NCBI GenBank assembly: GCA_031291075.1
Contig: JARLJS010000274.1
Span: forward strand, 1 to 52,524
Source of the DNA: Nevskia sp.
Lineage (GTDB): Bacteria > Pseudomonadota > Gammaproteobacteria > Nevskiales > Nevskiaceae
DNA length: 52,524 nt
Direction: 5' to 3'
The position numbers and the translations under genes are program-made. The notes below the pieces were generated by a model. The model was not told where the DNA came from and made no database searches. It worked only from the letters and a program-made list of their open reading frames with translations. This document shows positions 1,524 through 31,677 of the stretch, one piece after another (within the stretch, counting starts at the first letter, position 1; each line of letters opens with the position of its first letter).

Positions 1524-2252
1524 TCAGTCGCGGCGGGCAACGAGGTTGATCAGGGTTTCTTCCCTTTTGGGGGACGGTGCGATGCCGAACCAGCGTTCCA
1601 TGATGCCGAGGTCGCCACGGCTCCACCACAGATAGGGATAGGACACGCGCTCGGGTGCAACCTCGAAGCCGGCCCGTCGGATCATCGCCAGGTATTCCTC
1701 GGCCGTGCGCTGCACGTCCATCGGGTGGCGGAACAGCAAGCGGATGATCCAGGAGTGGATGTACTTGCGGGTCGACTCGGCGAACAGCAGCAGGCCGCCG
1801 GGTTTGAGCACGCGGCGGAATTCGGCGAGCGCATGTTCCTGCTCCACCAGGTGATGGAAGGTCTGGTGGCAGAACACCATGTCGACCGACTCGGCCGGCA
1901 GCGGCAGGGCGGCGCTGCTGGCCTGCTTGAATTCCACCTCGATGCCGCGACGGCCGGTTTCAGCCTTCGACGCCTCGATCATGCGCGGATCGACGTCGAT
2001 GCCGATCAGCTTGCGCGGCGCGAAGCGCTCGTGCAGCAACGCGAACGAACGCCCCCAGCCGCAGCCAACGTCCACGATCACCGGATTGGAAGGTCTGGGC
2101 TCCGGGATCAGCCGGTCCAGATCGTCCAGCGCACGCTTGAGCACGTGCACCGCCCAGGTTTCGGTATTGAGGAACCAGACGCCGAAGCGCGTCTCGGGGA
2201 CATGGTCCCGGTGGGGCTGCGGGGTGTTGCCGAGGTTTTCGATGTGCTGCAC
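1524..2252 (-). CDS. Class I SAM-dependent methyltransferase
   Basis: About 242 residues if started at the GTG at 2252, which follows GAGGCGG at suitable spacing; the longer open frame upstream overlaps the divergent oxidoreductase. Motif I is V-D-V-G-C-G-W-G-R-S (about 60-69), followed by the acidic I-G-I-D-V-D strand, VDMVFCHQTFHH after motif II, and LKPGGLLLFAEST for the post-motif region: the Methyltransf_11 pattern. The substrate cannot be read from the sequence. It is divergent from the quinone oxidoreductase, 139 bp apart. Confidence 0.8.
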   Translation of the reverse strand: MQHIENLGNTPQPHRDHVPETRFGVWFLNTETWAVHVLKRALDDLDRLIPEPRPSNPVIVDVGCGWGRSFALLHERFAPRKLIGIDVDPRMIEASKAETGRRGIEVEFKQASSAALPLPAESVDMVFCHQTFHHLVEQEHALAEFRRVLKPGGLLLFAESTRKYIHSWIIRLLFRHPMDVQRTAEEYLAMIRRAGFEVAPERVSYPYLWWSRGDLGIMERWFGIAPSPKREETLINLVARRD

Positions 2253-2391
2253 TGGCCGCCTCGAGTTCCTGATGTCCGTTTGTGGTGATTCTACGCACAA
2301 TTGACGCTGTCGCTCACCCGCTGGCGCCCGCGGCGGCGACCGTTGTATGGTGCAGCGCCGCGCCGATGGCGCCATATCACGAGAAGACGCA

Positions 2392-3366
2392 ATGAAGGCG
2401 ATTGTCTGCCGCGAGCTGGGCCCACCCGAAAAGCTCGTGTTCGAGGAGGTGCCGGAGCCGCCGATGGGCCCTGGCCAGGTGCGCATCGCGGTGCAGGGTG
2501 CCGGCGTGAATTTTCCGGACACGCTGATCATCCAGGGCAAGTACCAGATGAAGGCGGCGCCGCCCTTTACGCCCGGCGCGGAAGTGGCGGGGACCGTGCT
2601 GGCGGTGGGCGAGCGGGTGAAGCACGTCAAGGTGGGCGACCACGTGGCCGCCCTGGTGCCGGTCGGCGGCTTTGCCGAGCAGGTGGTGGCCTCGGGCGAC
2701 AGCGTGATGCCGCTGCCGGCGGGAATGGACCCGGTGATCGCCGGGGGCTTCCCCCTCGCCTACGGCACCTCCCTGCATGCCCTCAAGCAGCGCGGCCAGC
2801 TCAAGCCGGGCGAGACGCTGCTGGTGCTGGGCGCCGCCGGCGGCGTGGGCCTGTCCGCGGTGCAGATCGGCAAGCTGATGGGCGCGCGCGTCATCGCCGC
2901 CGCTTCGAGTGCCGACAAGCTGGCGCTATGCAAGGCGCACGGCGCTGACGAACTGGTCGACTACTCCAAGGAAAGCCTGAAGGAAGCGGTGAAGAAGCTC
3001 ACCCGCACGCAGGGCGCGGACGTGATCTACGACCCGGTCGGCGGCGAGCTGGCGCAGGACTGCCTGTCGGCGATCAACTGGAACGGCCGCTACCTGGTGA
3101 TCGGCTTCGCCGCCGGCACCATCCCGGAGATCGCCACCAACCGCCTGCTGCTCAAGGGCGCGTCGGCGGTGGGGGTGTTCTGGGGCGCGTTCGTGGCACG
3201 CGAGCCGAAGGTAAGCCAGGAAAACTTCGAGCAACTGTTCGGCTGGGTCGCCTCCGGCCAGCTCAAGCCCTACGTATCGAAAATCTATCCCTTGAGCCAG
3301 GGGGCGCAGGCCCTGCGCGACATGCTGGAGCGCAAGGTGACCGGCAAGATCGTGCTGAAGGCCTGA
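2392..3366 (+). CDS. Zinc-independent NADPH:quinone oxidoreductase (MDR family)
   Basis: 324 residues from ATG 2392, preceded by GAGAAG. It has the N-terminal GroES-like fold (GVNFPDTLIIQGKY, PFTPGAEVAGTV) and a Rossmann domain with nucleotide loop V-L-G-A-A-G-G-V-G (about 145-153), then YDPVGGELAQDCL and the typical C-terminal end SQGAQALRDM...GKIVLKA. The zinc-binding cysteines of alcohol dehydrogenases are absent, as in QorA-type enzymes. Likely cytosolic NADPH-dependent reduction of quinones or enones. Substrate and physiological role are not determinable here. Confidence 0.87.
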   Translation: MKAIVCRELGPPEKLVFEEVPEPPMGPGQVRIAVQGAGVNFPDTLIIQGKYQMKAAPPFTPGAEVAGTVLAVGERVKHVKVGDHVAALVPVGGFAEQVVASGDSVMPLPAGMDPVIAGGFPLAYGTSLHALKQRGQLKPGETLLVLGAAGGVGLSAVQIGKLMGARVIAAASSADKLALCKAHGADELVDYSKESLKEAVKKLTRTQGADVIYDPVGGELAQDCLSAINWNGRYLVIGFAAGTIPEIATNRLLLKGASAVGVFWGAFVAREPKVSQENFEQLFGWVASGQLKPYVSKIYPLSQGAQALRDMLERKVTGKIVLKA

Positions 3367-3374
3367 GCGATCAA

Positions 3375-3403
3375 CCGGTCCGCCCGCCGCGCGGGCGGAC
3401 CGG
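3375..3403. terminator. Strong hairpin between convergent genes
   Basis: Perfect 13-bp inverted repeat (CCGGTCCGCCCGC / GCGGGCGGACCGG, loop CGC) just after the oxidoreductase stop and before the end of the small minus-strand gene. No T-run follows on either side, so it may be a pause site or 3'-end stabiliser rather than a classical intrinsic terminator. Confidence 0.45.
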
Positions 3404-3421
3404 GGCGTTGCAGAGAGCGGC

Positions 3422-3628
3422 TCAGCCCTTCACGCAGTTCCGGTGCAGCCCAGCGGACGTGTCGGCCATCAAGGTGCCCACGTCGTCCCACTGCGAGTAG
3501 TAGCGCTGGCCGGCGGTGGGCGTGCGAGCCAGGGCCGCGCCGAGTGCCGCGTTGACCGCCAGGGCCATGACCACTGCGACGACCGTCACCGGTATGCCGT
3601 GATCCCGTGCCGTTTTCGTGCTTTGCAT
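3422..3628 (-). CDS. Small single-span membrane or secreted protein, unknown
   Basis: 68 residues. The start is supported by a strong GGAGAGG seven bases upstream of ATG 3628. After a basic N-terminus (STKTARDHG), one hydrophobic segment runs about residues 12-34 (IPVTVVAVVMALAVNAALGAAL). It is either a membrane anchor or an uncleaved signal. The remainder is short and polar, with YYSQWDDVGTLMADT and one Cys near the C-terminus. No family recognised; it probably stands alone. Confidence 0.6.
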   Translation of the reverse strand: MQSTKTARDHGIPVTVVAVVMALAVNAALGAALARTPTAGQRYYSQWDDVGTLMADTSAGLHRNCVKG

Positions 3629-3817
3629 GACAGCCTCTCCAAAATCTGTTTGTCCGTGGGCCGGAGGAGAATTCCGCCGGCACCACTTGGATGCGACCGC
3701 CGTTGCATTTGGATTAAGGCGGGCGCAAATATTTCGGCGCGATGATTTTCCCGGCGGTAGCGCCGACGCCTTTGCCGCACTGCGGCATGGCTGCGGGTCC
3801 GGCCGGGTGGGCTACGG

Positions 3818-3823
3818 TATAAT
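3818..3823 (+). promoter_or_regulatory. TATAAT -10-like hexamer upstream of miaB
   Basis: A perfect TATAAT lies 38 bases before the miaB ATG within the 233-bp gap that precedes it. At the expected distance upstream only GGGTCC is found, so there is no recognisable -35 hexamer. Plausible promoter for the miaB operon; weak evidence. Confidence 0.35.
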
Positions 3824-3861
3824 TGCCGCTTACCCCCAGCGTGACCCGCCCTAAGCCCCTG

Positions 3862-5199
3862 ATGTCAAAGCTTTTCATCAAGACCTTCGGCTGCCAGATG
3901 AACGAGTACGACTCGTCCAAGATGGCGGACGTGCTGAAGGCCTCGCACGGCTACGAGCTGACCACGGACCCGGAGGCGGCTGACCTGCTGCTGTTGAACA
4001 CCTGTTCGGTTCGGGAAAAGGCGCAGGAAAAGGTGTTCTCCGAGCTGGGGCGCTGGAAGGAGTGGAAGAGCGCGCAGCCGGGCCGGGTGATCGGCGTCGG
4101 CGGCTGCGTGGCGAGCCAGGAAGGCGAGGCGCTGGCAAAGCGCGCGCGCATCGTCGACCTGGTGTTCGGGCCGCAGACCCTGCACCGCCTGCCGGAACTG
4201 CTGGAGCAGGCACGCCGCACGCAGCGGCCGGCGGTGGACATCCGCTTTCCGGAAATCGAGAAGTTCGACAAGCTGCCGGAACCGCGCGCCGAGGGTCCCA
4301 CCGCTTTCGTCTCGATCATGGAAGGCTGCAGCAAGTACTGCACCTTCTGCATCGTGCCGTACACGCGCGGCGAGGAAGTGAGCCGGCCGCTGGACGACGT
4401 GCTGGCGGAGATCGCCTCGCTGCTGGAGCAGGGCGTGCGCGAGATCACGCTGCTGGGGCAGAACGTCAACGCCTACCGCGGGCCAATGGCCGGCGGCGGC
4501 AGCTGCGACCTGGCGCTGCTGATCCACGTGCTGGCGCGCTTCGAAACGCTCGGACGCATCCGCTTCACCACCTCGCATCCGGCCGAGTTCGGCGACGCCC
4601 TGATCGAGACCTACGCCACCCAGCCCAAGCTGGCCGGGTACCTGCACCTGCCGGTGCAGTCGGGCTCGGACCGCATTCTGGGCATGATGAAGCGCGGCTA
4701 CAGCCGCGCGCAGTACCTGGACAAGATCCGCCGCCTGCGGCAGGCGCGGCCGGACCTGGCGCTGTCGTCGGACTTCATCGTCGGCTTTCCCTCCGAAAGT
4801 GACGAGGACTTCGAGCAGACCATGGCGCTGATCGAGGAAGCGCGCTTCGACTCCGCCTATTCCTTCATCTACAGCCCGCGGCCCGGCACTCCGGCGGCGA
4901 ACCTGCGCGACAACGTCAAGGTGGAAGTGAAGCAGCAACGGCTGGAACGCCTGCAGGCCCGCATCCGCGAATTCGGCGCCGGGTTCGCGCAGGAGCTGGT
5001 GGGGAGCAGCCAGACCGTGCTGGTGGAGAAGCGCGGGCGCCACGATGGCCAGCTCGCCGGCAGGACGCCGTGCAACCGCTGGCTCAATTTCGACGGTCCC
5101 GACGCCCTCATCGGCCGCTTCGTCGACGTGCAGGTGACCGAGGCGCTGACGAATTCCCTGCGCGGCCGCCTGGCTGGCACTGCGGCGGCTGGCGCGTGA
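3862..5199 (+). CDS. miaB: tRNA-2-methylthio-N6-dimethylallyladenosine synthase MiaB
   Basis: 445 residues from the ATG giving [18 protein letters not shown]. Cytosolic radical-SAM methylthiotransferase adding the 2-methylthio group to i6A37 of tRNAs. The UPF0004 domain holds cluster cysteines C11, C48 and C82; the radical-SAM motif C-x3-C-x2-C is C156/C160/C163 ([14 protein letters not shown]). A TRAM domain ends the protein (VLVEKRG...[18 protein letters not shown]). First gene of an operon; its stop overlaps the GTG of the PhoH-like gene by four bases. Confidence 0.96.
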
Positions 5200-25718: not shown

Positions 25719-26555
25719 TCAGCGCTCCTTCGGGTCGAGCGCATCGCGCAGGGCGTCGCCCAGGAAGTTCAGGCACAGCAGGGTGACCGACAGGAAGGCG
25801 GCCGGCACGCCCAGCGCCCAGGGCGCGGTCTCCATGGCGTGGGCGCCGTCGCTCACCAGGGCGCCCCAGCTCGTCCGCGGCTCGTTGACGCCGAGGCCGA
25901 GAAAGCTGAGGAAGGATTCCACCAGGATCACCTGGGGAACGGTGAGGGTGGCGTACACCACCACCACGCCGAGCAGGTTCGGCACGATATGGCGGCGGAT
26001 CACGGTGGCCGGCCGCGCGCCGGCGACCAGCGCCGCCTCGACGAACTCGCGCTGGCGCAGGCTGAGGGTCTGTCCGCGCACGATGCGCGCCATGTCGAGC
26101 CAGTTGACGCCGCCGATGGCCAGGAAGATCAGCAGAATGTGGCGACCGAAGAACACCGTCAGCAGGATCACGAAGAACATGAACGGCAGGGCGTAGAGCA
26201 CGTCCACCGCGCGCATCATCAACGCATCGACACGGCCGCCGGCGTAGCCCGCGACCGCGCCGTAGGTCACGCCGATCAGCAGCGACACCAGCGTCGCCGC
26301 CAAGCCCACCAGCAGGGAGATGCGGCCGCCGTAGCAGGCGCGCGCGAACAGGTCACGTCCCAGCTCGTCGGTGCCGAGCCAGTGTCCGCCGGACAGGCCT
26401 GGCGGCGCCGACCAGGCGCCGTCAAAGTCGACCGCGTCGTAGGGCCAGGGGGAAAGCATGGGGCCGAAGATGACCAATAGGACGATCACGGCGAGAACAG
26501 ACCCAGCGACCGCGGCGGCGCGGTCCCGGAACAGTGCTGGCAATGTCCCGGCCAA
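25719..26555 (-). CDS. oppC: Oligopeptide ABC transporter permease (OppC/DppC)
   Basis: 278 residues from TTG 26555; a second TTG at 26543 is possible and no ATG lies near the expected start. N-terminal helix V-L-A-V-I-V-L-L-V-I-F-G-P, W-L-G-T-D-E-L-G-R-D-L-F-A-R preceding the transport core, and the EAA loop E-A-A-L-V-A-G-A-R-P-A-T-V-I-R-R-H-I-V-P-N identify OppC/DppC. Multi-spanning inner-membrane permease. The repeat-flanked DUF559 cassette separates it from oppB, and its start lies about 20 bp beyond that cassette, so the original start codon may have been lost. Confidence 0.9.
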   Translation of the reverse strand: MAGTLPALFRDRAAAVAGSVLAVIVLLVIFGPMLSPWPYDAVDFDGAWSAPPGLSGGHWLGTDELGRDLFARACYGGRISLLVGLAATLVSLLIGVTYGAVAGYAGGRVDALMMRAVDVLYALPFMFFVILLTVFFGRHILLIFLAIGGVNWLDMARIVRGQTLSLRQREFVEAALVAGARPATVIRRHIVPNLLGVVVVYATLTVPQVILVESFLSFLGLGVNEPRTSWGALVSDGAHAMETAPWALGVPAAFLSVTLLCLNFLGDALRDALDPKER

Positions 26556-26559
26556 GTAG

Positions 26560-26973
26560 CTAGGCCTGCGTCACGCTCCCCTCTCCCGCTTGCGGGAGAG
26601 GGGCAGGGGGAGAGGGGCTTTTGCGCTCAACGAACAAGCGGATACTCTCCAATACCGCAGCGGTATCCGAAAGGACGTCGTGGTTCCAAAATCGCAATAC
26701 GGTGAATCCTTGTGCGCTTAACCACTCGTCGCGTATGCGGTCCCCGTCTCGCCGCTGCTCATTGTGAGGTCCGCCGTCCACTTCGACAACAAGCGCATAC
26801 TCAAAGCAGACAAAGTCGACAACATACGGCCCTACAGGTTTTTGTCGCTTGAATTTCAAACCCTGGAAGCGATGCGCACGCAAGCGATACCACAAGCGCA
26901 ACTCCGCCTGGGTCGGATTCTTGCGCAGCCGCTTGGCGCGGTTGACCGATGTTGACTTCTTGACGTCTGGCAA
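26560..26973 (-). CDS. DUF559 (Vsr/PD-(D/E)xK-like) endonuclease-domain protein
   Basis: About 137 residues from TTG 26973, for which the inner flanking repeat supplies GGAGAGGGG as ribosome-binding site; the frame is open back to a GTG at 27021, through the repeat. Core: R-L-R-K-N-P-T-Q-A-E-L-R-L-W, F-K-R-Q-K-P-V-G-P-Y-V-V-D-F-V-C, V-V-E-V-D-G-G-P-H, D-R-I-R-D-E-W-L, G-F-T-V-L-R-F-W-N-H-D-V. This is the DUF559 pattern, related to Vsr-like nucleases. The body is visibly AT-richer than its neighbours. The last 17 residues read into the other repeat arm. Probably foreign; function unproven. Confidence 0.85.
   Translation of the reverse strand: MPDVKKSTSVNRAKRLRKNPTQAELRLWYRLRAHRFQGLKFKRQKPVGPYVVDFVCFEYALVVEVDGGPHNEQRRDGDRIRDEWLSAQGFTVLRFWNHDVLSDTAAVLESIRLFVERKSPSPPAPLPQAGEGSVTQA
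26578..26622. repeat. Left terminal repeat of the DUF559 cassette
   Basis: Perfect 12-bp-arm palindrome at 26578-26603 (loop TT) followed by the inner arm ending GAGAGGGGCTTTT. Inverted relative to the copy at 26972-27015. When read through, it encodes the PLPQAGEG-type tail of the DUF559 frame. Confidence 0.85.
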
Positions 26974-27015
26974 AAGCCCCTCTCCCCTACCCCTCTCCCG
27001 CAAGCGGGAGAGGGG
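26972..27015. repeat. Right terminal repeat of the DUF559 cassette
   Basis: Inner arm AAAAGCCCCTCTCCCCTA, then the palindrome at 26990-27015 (12-bp arms, loop AA). It begins six bases after the oppB stop. On the minus strand its GGAGAGGGG lies just upstream of the likely TTG start of the DUF559 gene. Confidence 0.85.
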
Positions 27016-27020
27016 AAACA

Positions 27021-27950
27021 CTACGACTCACCCAATCTCACGCGTGGATCCAGCACCCCGTACAGCAGGTCCACGATGAAGTTGAACAGGATGATCAACG
27101 CCCCGTAGAACAGCACCACGCCGAGCACCAGCGTGTAGTCGCGGTTGAGCGCCGCCTGCACGAAGTAACGCCCGATGCCGGGAATGCCGAACACCTGCTC
27201 CACCACCACCGAGCCGGTGACGATGGCGGCGGCGGCGGGTCCCAGGTAGGACAGCAGCGGCAGCGCCGCTGGCTTGAGTGCGTGGCGCCAGACGATCAGG
27301 CGCAGCGGCAAACCCTTGGCGCGCGCGGTGCGGATGAAGGGGGCGCCGAGCACCTCGATCAGCGAGGCGCGCGCCAGGCGGGCGACGGCGGCGATCTGCG
27401 GCAGCGCCAGGGTGACGACGGGCAGTACCGCGTCTGCGACGCCGTGCCTGCTCCAGCCGCCGGCCGGCAGCCAGTTCAGGGTGACGGCGAACAGCAGGAT
27501 CAGCAGCGGCGCCACCACGTAGCTGGGCAGCGAGATGCCGAACATCGCCAAGGCCATCAACATCCGGTCCGCCGCGCTGTTGCGGCGCAGGGCGGCGGCG
27601 CAACCCAGGGCGCCGCCGAGCAGCACGGCGAGCAGGATGGCGCAGGCGCCCAACCGGAACGAGACCGGCGCGCCGCTGCCGATCAGTTCGGCCACGCGGA
27701 AGCCCTGGTACTGGAACGAAGGTCCCAGGTCGCCGCGGGTGAGGCCGCCGAGATAGTGCAGGTACTGGCGCACCAGGGGTTCGTCGAGATGGTATTCGGC
27801 ACGCAGGGTCTGCTCGATCTGCGGCGGCAGCGCCCGCTCGCGGTCGAAGGGCCCGCCCGGCGCGGCGCGCATCAGAAAGAACGCCAGGGTCACCAGCAGG
27901 AGCAGGGTCGGAACGGCGCCGAGCAGGCGCTTGAATGCGTAGCTAAGCAT
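27021..27950 (-). CDS. oppB: Oligopeptide ABC transporter permease (OppB/DppB)
   Basis: 309 residues from ATG 27950 (MLSYAFKRLLGAVP), the usual family start; ATG 27968 would add six residues. Six membrane helices; N-terminal F-F-L-M-R-A-A-P-G-G-P-F-D and Y-H-L-D-E-P-L-V-R-Q-Y-L-H-Y-L are OppB hallmarks. The EAA loop reads R-T-A-R-A-K-G-L-P-L-R-L-I-V-W-R-H-A-L-K-P-A, and Q-V-F-G-I-P-G-I-G-R-Y-F-V follows. Inner-membrane partner of OppC. The stop is directly beside the DUF559 cassette. Confidence 0.92.
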   Translation of the reverse strand: MLSYAFKRLLGAVPTLLLLVTLAFFLMRAAPGGPFDRERALPPQIEQTLRAEYHLDEPLVRQYLHYLGGLTRGDLGPSFQYQGFRVAELIGSGAPVSFRLGACAILLAVLLGGALGCAAALRRNSAADRMLMALAMFGISLPSYVVAPLLILLFAVTLNWLPAGGWSRHGVADAVLPVVTLALPQIAAVARLARASLIEVLGAPFIRTARAKGLPLRLIVWRHALKPAALPLLSYLGPAAAAIVTGSVVVEQVFGIPGIGRYFVQAALNRDYTLVLGVVLFYGALIILFNFIVDLLYGVLDPRVRLGES

Positions 27951-27997
27951 GGACTGTAGCCGGAACATTCTCAGTCCAGGGCGCGTCCAGAGTTGTT

Positions 27998-28023
27998 CCC
28001 CTCTCCCGCTTGCGGGAAAGGGG
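27998..28023. repeat. Solitary copy of the 26-bp palindrome
   Basis: CCCCTCTCCCGC-TT-GCGGGAAAGGGG: the cassette palindrome with one changed base in the right arm and no inner arm. It lies in the oppA-oppB gap. Confidence 0.85.
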
Positions 28024-31569: not shown

Positions 31570-31677
31570 CCCCTCTCCCGCTTGCGGGAGAGGGTGGCCC
31601 GCAGGGCCGGGAGAGGGGCCTTCGGATCCGGTGGAAAGCCCCTCTCCCCTACCCCTCTCCCGCACGCGGGAGAGGGG
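31570..31677. repeat. Gene-less inverted pair of the DUF559-type repeat
   Basis: Palindrome at 31570-31595 (one terminal mismatch), a GGCCC-GCA-GGGCC hairpin and GAGAGGGGCCTTC; an 11-base spacer; then AAAGCCCCTCTCCCCTA and a second palindrome at 31652-31677. Same head-to-head layout as the termini of the DUF559 cassette but without a gene. It lies between the two sulfotransferase genes. Confidence 0.85.

What the first reader, a model, noticed from the sequence alone, without database searches (positions are those of the whole stretch)
26578..27015. DUF559 nuclease-like gene bracketed by inverted palindromic repeats: a candidate undescribed mobile element
Seen: a DUF559 gene, visibly AT-richer than its surroundings, lies exactly between two ~45-base repeats in inverted orientation, each a perfect 12-bp-arm palindrome plus an inner arm. 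It interrupts oppB-oppC without damaging either frame. Known: REP/REPIN sequences are mobilised by RAYT transposases, which are single genes flanked by inverted REPs. Inference: DUF559, a Vsr/PD-(D/E)xK-like nuclease domain, may play the RAYT role for this repeat family.
Basis: partly seen in the sequence, partly recalled or inferred. Interest (0 to 1): 0.75.

Follow-up and report, generated by a model that had tools for sequence, protein, structure and literature searches.

The report
Nuclease gene bracketed by triplex repeats
A small DNA-cutting enzyme of unknown purpose turns out, in many bacterial groups, to sit between two inward-facing copies of a scattered repeat that can fold into three-stranded DNA, which gives those long-known orphan repeats a likely enzyme of their own, testable in ordinary E. 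coli.

Summary
The DUF559 gene between oppB and oppC lies between two inverted copies of a dispersed repeat. Of 118 anchored DUF559 loci from several phyla, 102 have such a hairpin on at least one side and 62 on both, at a set distance, over 70-fold above background.

Each repeat, read outside to inside, is pyrimidine arm, loop, purine arm, linker, second purine arm. The second purine arm mirrors the first, with A or T opposite A: the code of an intrastrand purine triplex. These are the known BoxC/PIT/TM_ECO triplex repeats (PMC4666352); ten literature searches showed no enzyme tied to them. E. coli YcjD is a DUF559 protein and its gene lies beside a BoxC.

The cassette is absent from the same junction in 29 of 31 genomes read, the own genome included. 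Repeat arm type tends to match the type flanking a genome's DUF559. RAYT-like genes in this genome have other repeats. The predicted fold resembles a homing endonuclease and Vsr.

Cleavage and mobilisation are inferred. Eight of 34 repeat-rich genomes lacked a detected DUF559.

The parts
26560..27021 (-). DUF559 (Vsr-like PD-(D/E)XK) nuclease gene, longest ORF 153 aa, running through both repeats; a start nearer the domain is possible (e.g. TTG at 26973, just inside the inner purine arm; inference)
   Evidence: domain 26632-26946
26632..26946 (-). DUF559 domain; 21 columns invariant in an alignment of 59 homologues
26990..27015 (-). upstream repeat: hairpin (pyrimidine arm - loop - purine arm)
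26977..26987 (-). upstream repeat: inner purine arm, mirror of the hairpin's purine arm (putative third strand), after a 2-nt linker (26988-26989)
26578..26603 (+). downstream repeat: hairpin
26606..26617 (+). downstream repeat: inner purine arm (putative third strand), after a 2-nt linker (26604-26605)
25719..26555 (-). oppC-like permease gene on one side of the insertion
27021..27968 (-). oppB permease gene on the other side
31570..31677 (.). gene-less inverted doublet (REPIN-like) with like ends: one end with a 2-nt linker, the other with a mini-hairpin linker
27998..28023 (.). single, slightly decayed hairpin of the same family between oppA and oppB; no comparable match (6-8 of 18 letters wrong at best) at that junction in six relatives

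Best explanation
DUF559 is the dedicated nuclease of the BoxC/PIT intrastrand-triplex repeats. Each repeat, when single-stranded, can fold into a hairpin whose purine strand takes up a fold-back third strand (hairpin plus mirror purine arm). The gene travels or is kept as a cassette between two inward-facing copies. The enzyme, related in fold to Vsr and to the homing endonuclease I-Bth0305I, most likely recognises the folded ends and cuts beside them, and so drives the spread and turnover of units bounded by an inverted pair: the gene cassette itself and short gene-less doublets. Host replication or repair completes insertion, because a PD-(D/E)XK nuclease is not known to join strands (recalled). 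Shown here: the bracketing, the inverted orientation, the mirror rule, gene-repeat matching, empty sites, conserved residues and purifying selection. Inferred: triplex folding of this copy, cleavage, substrate, mobilisation.
For: Position: pyrimidine-rich hairpins at 8.7/kb (-250..-200) and 9.0/kb (+150..+200) around the catalytic motif of 80 loci, against 0.04-0.12/kb beyond 600 bp; other palindromes 0.5-2.25/kb throughout. Inward-facing pairs 250-900 bp apart bracket DUF559 in 27 of 78 loci and another stretch only twice. Orientation: of 60 two-sided loci, 42 inverted, 10 direct, 8 ties. Mirror rule: among 114 flank repeats with asymmetric arms, mirror beats direct 63 to 4, 47 ties; opposite A 171 A, 58 T, 2 G, 1 C when A positions were not scored; in 38 hairpins from 20 stretches picked for other arm types in ten other genomes, mirror beats direct 31 to 0, 7 ties. 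Gene-repeat matching: own arm type commonest in 17 of 23 genomes, permuted mean 9.3. Copy number: 10 or more copies in 26 of 60 genomes with a strong DUF559 match against 8 of 216 without. Insertion: 29 of 31 oppB-oppC junctions without the cassette. Separate system: the four Y1 genes of the same genome have GTAG repeats. Short doublets: 34 matches in this genome. Enzyme: 21 invariant columns, dN/dS 0.04-0.25 in 18 pairs, Foldseek 3hrl, 3r3p, 1vsr. E. coli ycjD beside a BoxC.
Against: 16 of 118 loci show no such hairpin within the windows used, among them all four Legionella or Legionellaceae loci, although one Legionella genome has 43 copies of one arm type. About a third of loci (40 of 118) have a hairpin on one side only, as does E. 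coli ycjD. Eight of 34 genomes with 10 or more copies lack a detected DUF559. Arm type and genome abundance disagree in 6 of 23 genomes. Two O157:H7 records keep 15 BoxC-like places each, while two O157 rows of another listing match only the sapF end of the ycjD region. No target duplication or excision product was seen. PD-(D/E)XK nucleases are not known to transfer strands (recalled). At some sites (acnD-prpF; one Rhodanobacter locus) the gene is positionally conserved between species, so movement must be rare.
Confidence: 0.58

Rival explanations
1. Homing-type selfish gene: the nuclease cuts at BoxC repeats that already exist and is copied into them by host repair, the two flanking repeats being its landing pad. 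The repeats themselves spread by other means.
For: Fold neighbour is the homing endonuclease I-Bth0305I; the gene lies at different sites and on plasmids; the two DUF559 genes of this genome fall far apart on the tree.
Against: Does not explain why repeat number follows the gene or why arm type tends to match it. The junctions of relatives show no repeat to land in.
Confidence: 0.2
2. Housekeeping role: the nuclease resolves or repairs triplex-forming sites that stall replication. It sits beside repeats because both are kept as a pair, and it does not move DNA.
For: Purifying selection and conserved positions between species. PMC4666352 tells of polymerase arrest by such structures and reports instability at BoxC loci.
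Against: Inward-facing bracketing at many different sites, empty sites in relatives, patchy presence (60 of 276 genomes with a strong match). The same paper tells that an earlier study of PIT elements saw the polymerase block in vitro but no effect in vivo.
Confidence: 0.13
3. Passive association: the repeats accumulate between genes and DUF559 merely tolerates them.
For: Repeats are numerous in many genomes; some have them without a detected DUF559.
Against: Over 70-fold local peak with no such peak for other palindromes; 27 against 2 bracketed stretches; RAYT-like genes of the same genome have other repeats.
Confidence: 0.04
4. The repeats are ordinary REPs moved by the RAYT transposases also present.
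For: Four Y1_Tnp matches exist in this genome, one below the family's cut-off.
Against: All four are flanked by GTAG-tagged repeats of other sequence; only 1 of 14 Y1 loci checked has a pyrimidine-rich hairpin within 350 bp, an imperfect one. G003 (84% complete) has 15 copies of the palindrome and no Y1 match.
Confidence: 0.02

Closest known systems
BoxC / PIT elements / TM_ECO: class II G/C-rich intrastrand triplex repeats (PMC4666352; abstract, sections 3 part 1, 15, 16, 18 and passages read)
   Same: Same order of arms (pyrimidine, purine, third-strand purine), same base code, dispersal, and inverted pairs of one linker type with the other. The published pattern CCCTCNCCC-N3-6-GGGNGAGGG-N3-GGGNGAGGG fits many flanks here by inspection, the window's with a small register shift.
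   Different: That paper found no link of the motif in E. coli with transposons, phages or plasmids, and its main text holds neither 'nuclease' nor 'DUF'. Here a gene family is tied to the repeats, and further arm types are added.
REP/REPIN repeats with RAYT (TnpA-REP) genes
   Same: Gene flanked by inverted copies of a dispersed short palindrome; gene-less inverted doublets; matched gene and repeat types.
   Different: Enzyme is PD-(D/E)XK, not HUH Y1; no constant GTAG tag; the ends carry a mirror purine arm.
Vsr / EDxHD homing endonuclease I-Bth0305I (PDB 3R3P) and PDB 3HRL ('putative endonuclease-like protein NGO0050')
   Same: Fold. A Neisseria DUF559 gene fetched from the plasmid collection has such a repeat downstream.
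   Different: Homing endonucleases lie in introns or beside target genes, without bracketing dispersed triplex repeats (recalled; the EDxHD label too).
E. coli YcjD (DUF559), grouped with PD-(D/E)XK nucleases near Vsr (PMC1189080, passages read)
   Same: Same family (E 1.4e-49); one BoxC about 170 bp beyond its 3' end.
   Different: Only one recognised repeat; in the three ycjD-less strains looked at an efflux operon lies at the site, named eef in PMC12817139 (passages read).

Membership tests
BoxC/PIT/TM_ECO intrastrand-triplex repeat | Pyrimidine arm - loop - purine arm - linker - mirror purine arm with G opposite G and A/T opposite A | tested here: met
   134 of 160 flank repeats match the mirror at 0.88 or better; 63 to 4 over direct in asymmetric arms; unscored A positions 171 A, 58 T, 2 G, 1 C; 36 of 38 dispersed copies
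BoxC/PIT/TM_ECO intrastrand-triplex repeat | Dispersed, with inverted pairs of two linker types | tested here: met
   34 inverted-doublet matches in this genome, each with one short-linker and one mini-hairpin end by inspection; six are identical copies at contig ends and may be fewer places
BoxC/PIT/TM_ECO intrastrand-triplex repeat | Measured triplex folding | not testable with these tools
   Reported for the E. coli motif in PMC4666352 (abstract); not measured for this repeat
REP/REPIN-RAYT | HUH (Y1) transposase | tested here: not met
   DUF559, Vsr-like fold
REP/REPIN-RAYT | GTAG tag at the foot of the hairpin | tested here: not met
   Linkers vary (CC, CT, TT, TC, CA, TA, mini-hairpins). 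The window's TA linker happens to spell GTAG with its neighbours, but this is not constant. GTAG-tagged palindromes flank the four Y1 genes instead
REP/REPIN-RAYT | Gene flanked by inverted repeats, with gene-less inverted doublets elsewhere | tested here: met
REP/REPIN-RAYT | Repeats persist only with the gene | tested here: inconclusive
   Strong association but 8 repeat-rich genomes without a detected gene
Vsr/EDxHD PD-(D/E)XK nucleases | Fold | tested here: met
   Foldseek 3hrl E 3.4e-9 (rank 1), 3r3p 2.5e-4 (rank 2), 1vsr 8.3e-3 (rank 6); Toxoplasma mitoribosome chains rank 3 and 5; model pLDDT 88.5
Vsr/EDxHD PD-(D/E)XK nucleases | Conserved putative catalytic residues | tested here: met
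   D60, D73, H77, D85 invariant and E71 nearly invariant in 59 homologues (numbering of window:26611-26994); their catalytic role is inferred
Homing endonuclease | Cuts an empty allele and is copied into it | not testable with these tools
   Only empty sites were seen

The most novel reading that the evidence does not exclude
DUF559/YcjD is the first known enzyme dedicated to intrastrand triplex DNA: a structure-guided nuclease that created and keeps spreading BoxC-type repeats in Proteobacteria and, by the few loci seen, in Cyanobacteria, Deinococcus and other phyla. That would be a repeat-plus-nuclease system unrelated to RAYT-REP in both enzyme and DNA structure, in which the cassette is the autonomous element and the short doublets are its gene-less passengers.
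Probability: 0.45. Interest if true: 0.92.

Novelty: new variant of a known kind. Interest (0 to 1): 0.82.

Why it matters
BoxC/PIT triplex repeats have been known since the 1990s (as told in PMC4666352) without an assigned function, and DUF559/YcjD is a common nuclease family without one. Tying them together turns two orphan problems into one that can be tested in E. coli K-12. It would show that the logic of REP-RAYT systems arose a second time with another enzyme and another DNA fold. It would offer a natural enzyme for handling triplex DNA and an explanation for the reported instability at BoxC loci.

Tried and rejected
RAYT as the mover: rejected, because the four Y1 genes of the genome have their own GTAG repeats.

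A recent transposition copy in Rhodanobacter sp. C06 (L046/L047): rejected. The two loci are identical over 12.5 kb, so it is a large duplication or an assembly effect.

The inner arm as a direct copy of the hairpin arm (a competing hairpin): rejected for asymmetric arm types. A G-quadruplex was considered and set aside because CCTTCTCCC-type repeats lack four G-runs of three (inspection; not computed).

Target-site duplications: none evident by eye; not tested formally. Likeness between the interior of the short doublets and the cassette interior was seen by eye only.

Rows dropped or not taken: the relatives search gave 48 matches, of which 46 were fetched; the GTDB scan kept the best 80 of 187. 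Of these 126 loci, 118 passed the motif anchor; 8 did not (L034, L040, L042, L043, L044, L153, L154, L155), of which L034 and L040 do have C-rich hairpins. The identical or near-identical L047 and L055 were counted but left out of the orientation, mirror and pair counts. Of 41 genomes in the arm-type matrix, 23 entered the permutation test; 18 with mixed, other or no flank types did not. Of 60 listed E. coli rows one partial record was dropped. One of 19 dN/dS pairs was saturated.

Possible bias: one of six peptide patterns of the GTDB scan lies next to the repeat. The Pfam-based set of relatives has no such bias and gives 33 of 38.

Full report
1. The observation. The DUF559 gene (PF04480, E 5.3e-39) lies between two perfect 26-bp palindromes at 26578-26603 and 26990-27015. 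Each palindrome has an inner arm, and the ends are inverted copies over 33 nt at 97%. The stretch is less GC-rich, about 0.58 against 0.68-0.73. Both neighbouring frames are intact; they are an OppB (above its NCBIfam cut-off) and an OppC-like permease (best match OppC, below its cut-off). The core palindrome occurs exactly 110 times in the 5.65-Mb draft genome, with none for the reversed control pattern; several copies lie at contig ends.

2. Association with DUF559 in general. I gathered DUF559-family loci without looking for repeats: 46 of the 48 matches of a Pfam search of the genome and its relatives, and the best 80 of 187 from a protein search over GTDB genomes. Of these 126, 118 could be anchored on the catalytic motif. 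Pyrimidine-rich hairpins peak sharply on both sides: in the GTDB set 8.7/kb at -250 to -200 and 9.0/kb at +150 to +200, against 0.04-0.12/kb beyond 600 bp. Other palindromes lie between 0.5 and 2.25/kb throughout in that set (up to 3.7/kb in the smaller set of relatives) and show no such peak. In the fixed windows, 37 of 80 GTDB loci have pyrimidine-rich hairpins on both sides, 32 on one and 11 on none; in the relatives the figures are 25, 8 and 5 of 38. Inward-facing pairs 250-900 bp apart bracket DUF559 in 27 of 78 loci and another stretch only twice (L081 and L091, in each case upstream of the DUF559 gene and ending within about 350 bp of its anchor). From 32 plasmid-collection records with a match (some are whole chromosomes) I chose eight to span phyla. 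Six have a pyrimidine-rich hairpin within 350 bp by the same rule; in the other two, both cyanobacterial, hairpins with shorter C-rich arms are seen by inspection; one of the eight also has such hairpins beyond 600 bp.

3. Anatomy. Read from the outside inward, a repeat is: pyrimidine arm, loop, purine arm, linker, second purine arm. The second purine arm is the mirror image of the first, not a copy. Over 160 flank repeats the mirror score is 0.932 against 0.875 for a direct copy; among 114 with asymmetric arms the mirror wins 63 to 4 with 47 ties. Swapping inner arms among loci lowers the score to 0.863 (maximum 0.873 of 200), so inner arm and hairpin co-vary. When only the G positions are required to match (118 of 147 repeats), the bases opposite A are 171 A, 58 T, 2 G and 1 C. 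G opposite G and A or T opposite A, antiparallel, is the code of a purine-motif triplex (stated in PMC4666352, section 3). Of 134 good mirror matches 113 start at offset 0-5, 3 at 7-8 and 18 at 14-25, the last often with a mini-hairpin as linker. In 20 stretches picked for other arm types from ten other genomes, 36 of 38 hairpins have a mirror arm, and mirror beats direct 31 to 0 with 7 ties. In this genome 34 inverted-doublet matches without a gene have, by inspection, one short-linker end and one mini-hairpin end each; six of them are identical copies at contig ends and may be fewer places. One lies in the window at 31570-31677. The two flanks of a DUF559 gene are inverted: 42 inverted, 10 direct, 8 ties of 60.

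4. What the repeats are. They are not new. The plan and sequence are those of the BoxC/PIT/TM_ECO intrastrand-triplex repeats (PMC4666352: abstract, sections 3 part 1, 15, 16 and 18, and passages read). That paper gives the pattern, 3610 copies in 262 proteobacterial genomes, biophysical work on the fold, instability at these loci, and inverted pairs of its type A with its type B. In E. coli it found no link to transposons, phages or plasmids, and its main text contains neither 'nuclease' nor 'DUF'. My ten literature searches showed no paper that by its listing links DUF559 or YcjD to these repeats; that library lacks most subscription journals and bioRxiv.

5. Gene and repeat vary together. 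Among 276 sampled genomes of the class, 10 or more copies of the commonest arm type occur in 26 of 60 with a DUF559 match at 1e-15 or better and in 8 of 216 without (odds ratio 19.9, Fisher p 1.9e-13, not corrected for ancestry). With the looser cut of 1e-3 it is 26 of 87 against 8 of 189. The eight exceptions (G121, G130, G132, G160, G169, G235, G330, G355; 10-78 copies) tell against strict dependence. The search may miss genes: its E. coli control did not ring, although K-12 YcjD scores E 1.4e-49; I do not know which strain the control is. For 23 genomes with a clear flank type, that type was the most abundant of the four counted in 17 (permuted mean 9.3, p 0.00025). On the protein tree arm types change 22 times over 93 rows against 31.5 for shuffled labels (minimum 26 of 300), though the tree is poorly resolved.

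6. Insertion. In 31 of the 37 genomes with an oppC match, the own one included, I read the oppB-oppC junction: 29 lack the cassette, and only this genome and G001, of the same genus, carry it. One of the 29 (L161) has an unrelated 266-bp filling. The single hairpin between oppA and oppB in this genome has no comparable match at that junction in G001, G003, G007, G008, G011 or G019 (best 6-8 of 18 letters wrong), although G011 has about 1.5 kb of other sequence there. The two DUF559 genes of this genome are far apart on the tree. Elsewhere the gene is stable in place: between acnD and prpF (TIGR02333, TIGR02334) in Marinobacter, with shared flanks in several other gamma- and betaproteobacteria, and at one shared locus in Rhodanobacter.

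7. The enzyme. Twenty-one columns are invariant in 59 homologues, including D60, D73, H77 and D85, with E71 nearly so. Pairs of close homologues give dN/dS 0.04-0.25 in 18 of 19 comparisons, one being saturated. The AlphaFold2 model (pLDDT 88.5, pTM 0.80) is nearest in the PDB to 3hrl (NGO0050), then the homing endonuclease I-Bth0305I catalytic domain 3r3p; Vsr (1vsr) is sixth, with Toxoplasma mitoribosome chains third and fifth. YcjD was already placed among PD-(D/E)XK nucleases near Vsr (PMC1189080, passages).

8. E. coli. K-12 ycjD has a BoxC about 170 bp beyond its 3' end and none recognised on the other side. A ycjD match is in 3365 of 5426 complete E. coli genomes. In three strains without it an efflux operon lies beside sapF or fabI, which PMC12817139 (passages) calls eef and describes as the alternative to ycjD at this site. 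In a spread sample, 38 records with the ycjD-linked BoxC have a mean of 21.6 BoxC-like places and 21 without it have 10.6, the lowest 2-4. This follows lineages and is not independent evidence; two O157:H7 records have 15.

9. RAYT as control. The four Y1 matches of this genome (one below the family's cut-off) are flanked by GTAG-tagged palindromes of other sequence. Of 14 Y1 loci checked only one has a pyrimidine-rich hairpin within 350 bp, an imperfect one. A GTAG tag was detected in only those four of the 14.

10. Mechanism. I commit to a nuclease that recognises the folded triplex ends and, by cutting, drives dispersal and turnover of units bounded by inward-facing pairs, with host enzymes joining the DNA. 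The partnership of gene and repeat I hold at about 0.9; mobilisation at about 0.55. The nearest rival is a homing-type gene that uses existing repeats as landing pads. Cutting, substrate and movement are not shown.

11. Verdict. It works like a RAYT-REP system but is not a member: the enzyme superfamily and the constant tag were tested and not met. The repeats are members of a known family; the nuclease family is known; what appears new is that they belong together.

Noticed in passing
L136 (G000:C259), 1504-1815: A second DUF559 gene in the same genome, with a different repeat subtype (CCCTCTCCC-TCT-GGGAGAGGG) and a distant place on the tree, as if acquired separately.
   Followed up: partly
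L137-L140 (same genome): Four Y1 transposase (RAYT-like) matches, each with its own GTAG-tagged palindromes: two repeat-plus-nuclease systems side by side in one genome.
   Followed up: yes
L069 3250-7657; shared flanks in L026, L027, L053, L056, L060, L061, L064, L068, L094, L125: DUF559 sits between acnD and prpF in Marinobacter, and loci of several other gamma- and betaproteobacteria share those flanks: another operon junction entered without breaking a frame.
   Followed up: partly
L102, L103, L115, L124 (Legionella and relatives): A DUF559 clade without recognisable flanking repeats; one of these genomes has 43 CCTTCTCCC-type palindromes elsewhere.
   Followed up: partly
L227 (E. coli K-12) 2252-4635 against L228-L230: ycjD and an efflux operon are alternatives at the sapF-fabI junction; whether the triplex repeat took part in the exchange is open.
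   Followed up: no
L046 and L047: Identical 12.5-kb stretches on one Rhodanobacter contig in opposite orientation: a duplication or an assembly error.
   Followed up: partly
L161 (G023), oppB-oppC junction: A different 266-bp filling with an unrelated palindrome at the same operon junction.
   Followed up: no
G000 contigs C7, C59, C124, C162, C245, C292: Six contigs begin with the same copy of the doublet, so the repeat seems to break the assembly; copy numbers in draft genomes are therefore uncertain and DUF559 genes between repeats may be lost from them.
   Followed up: no
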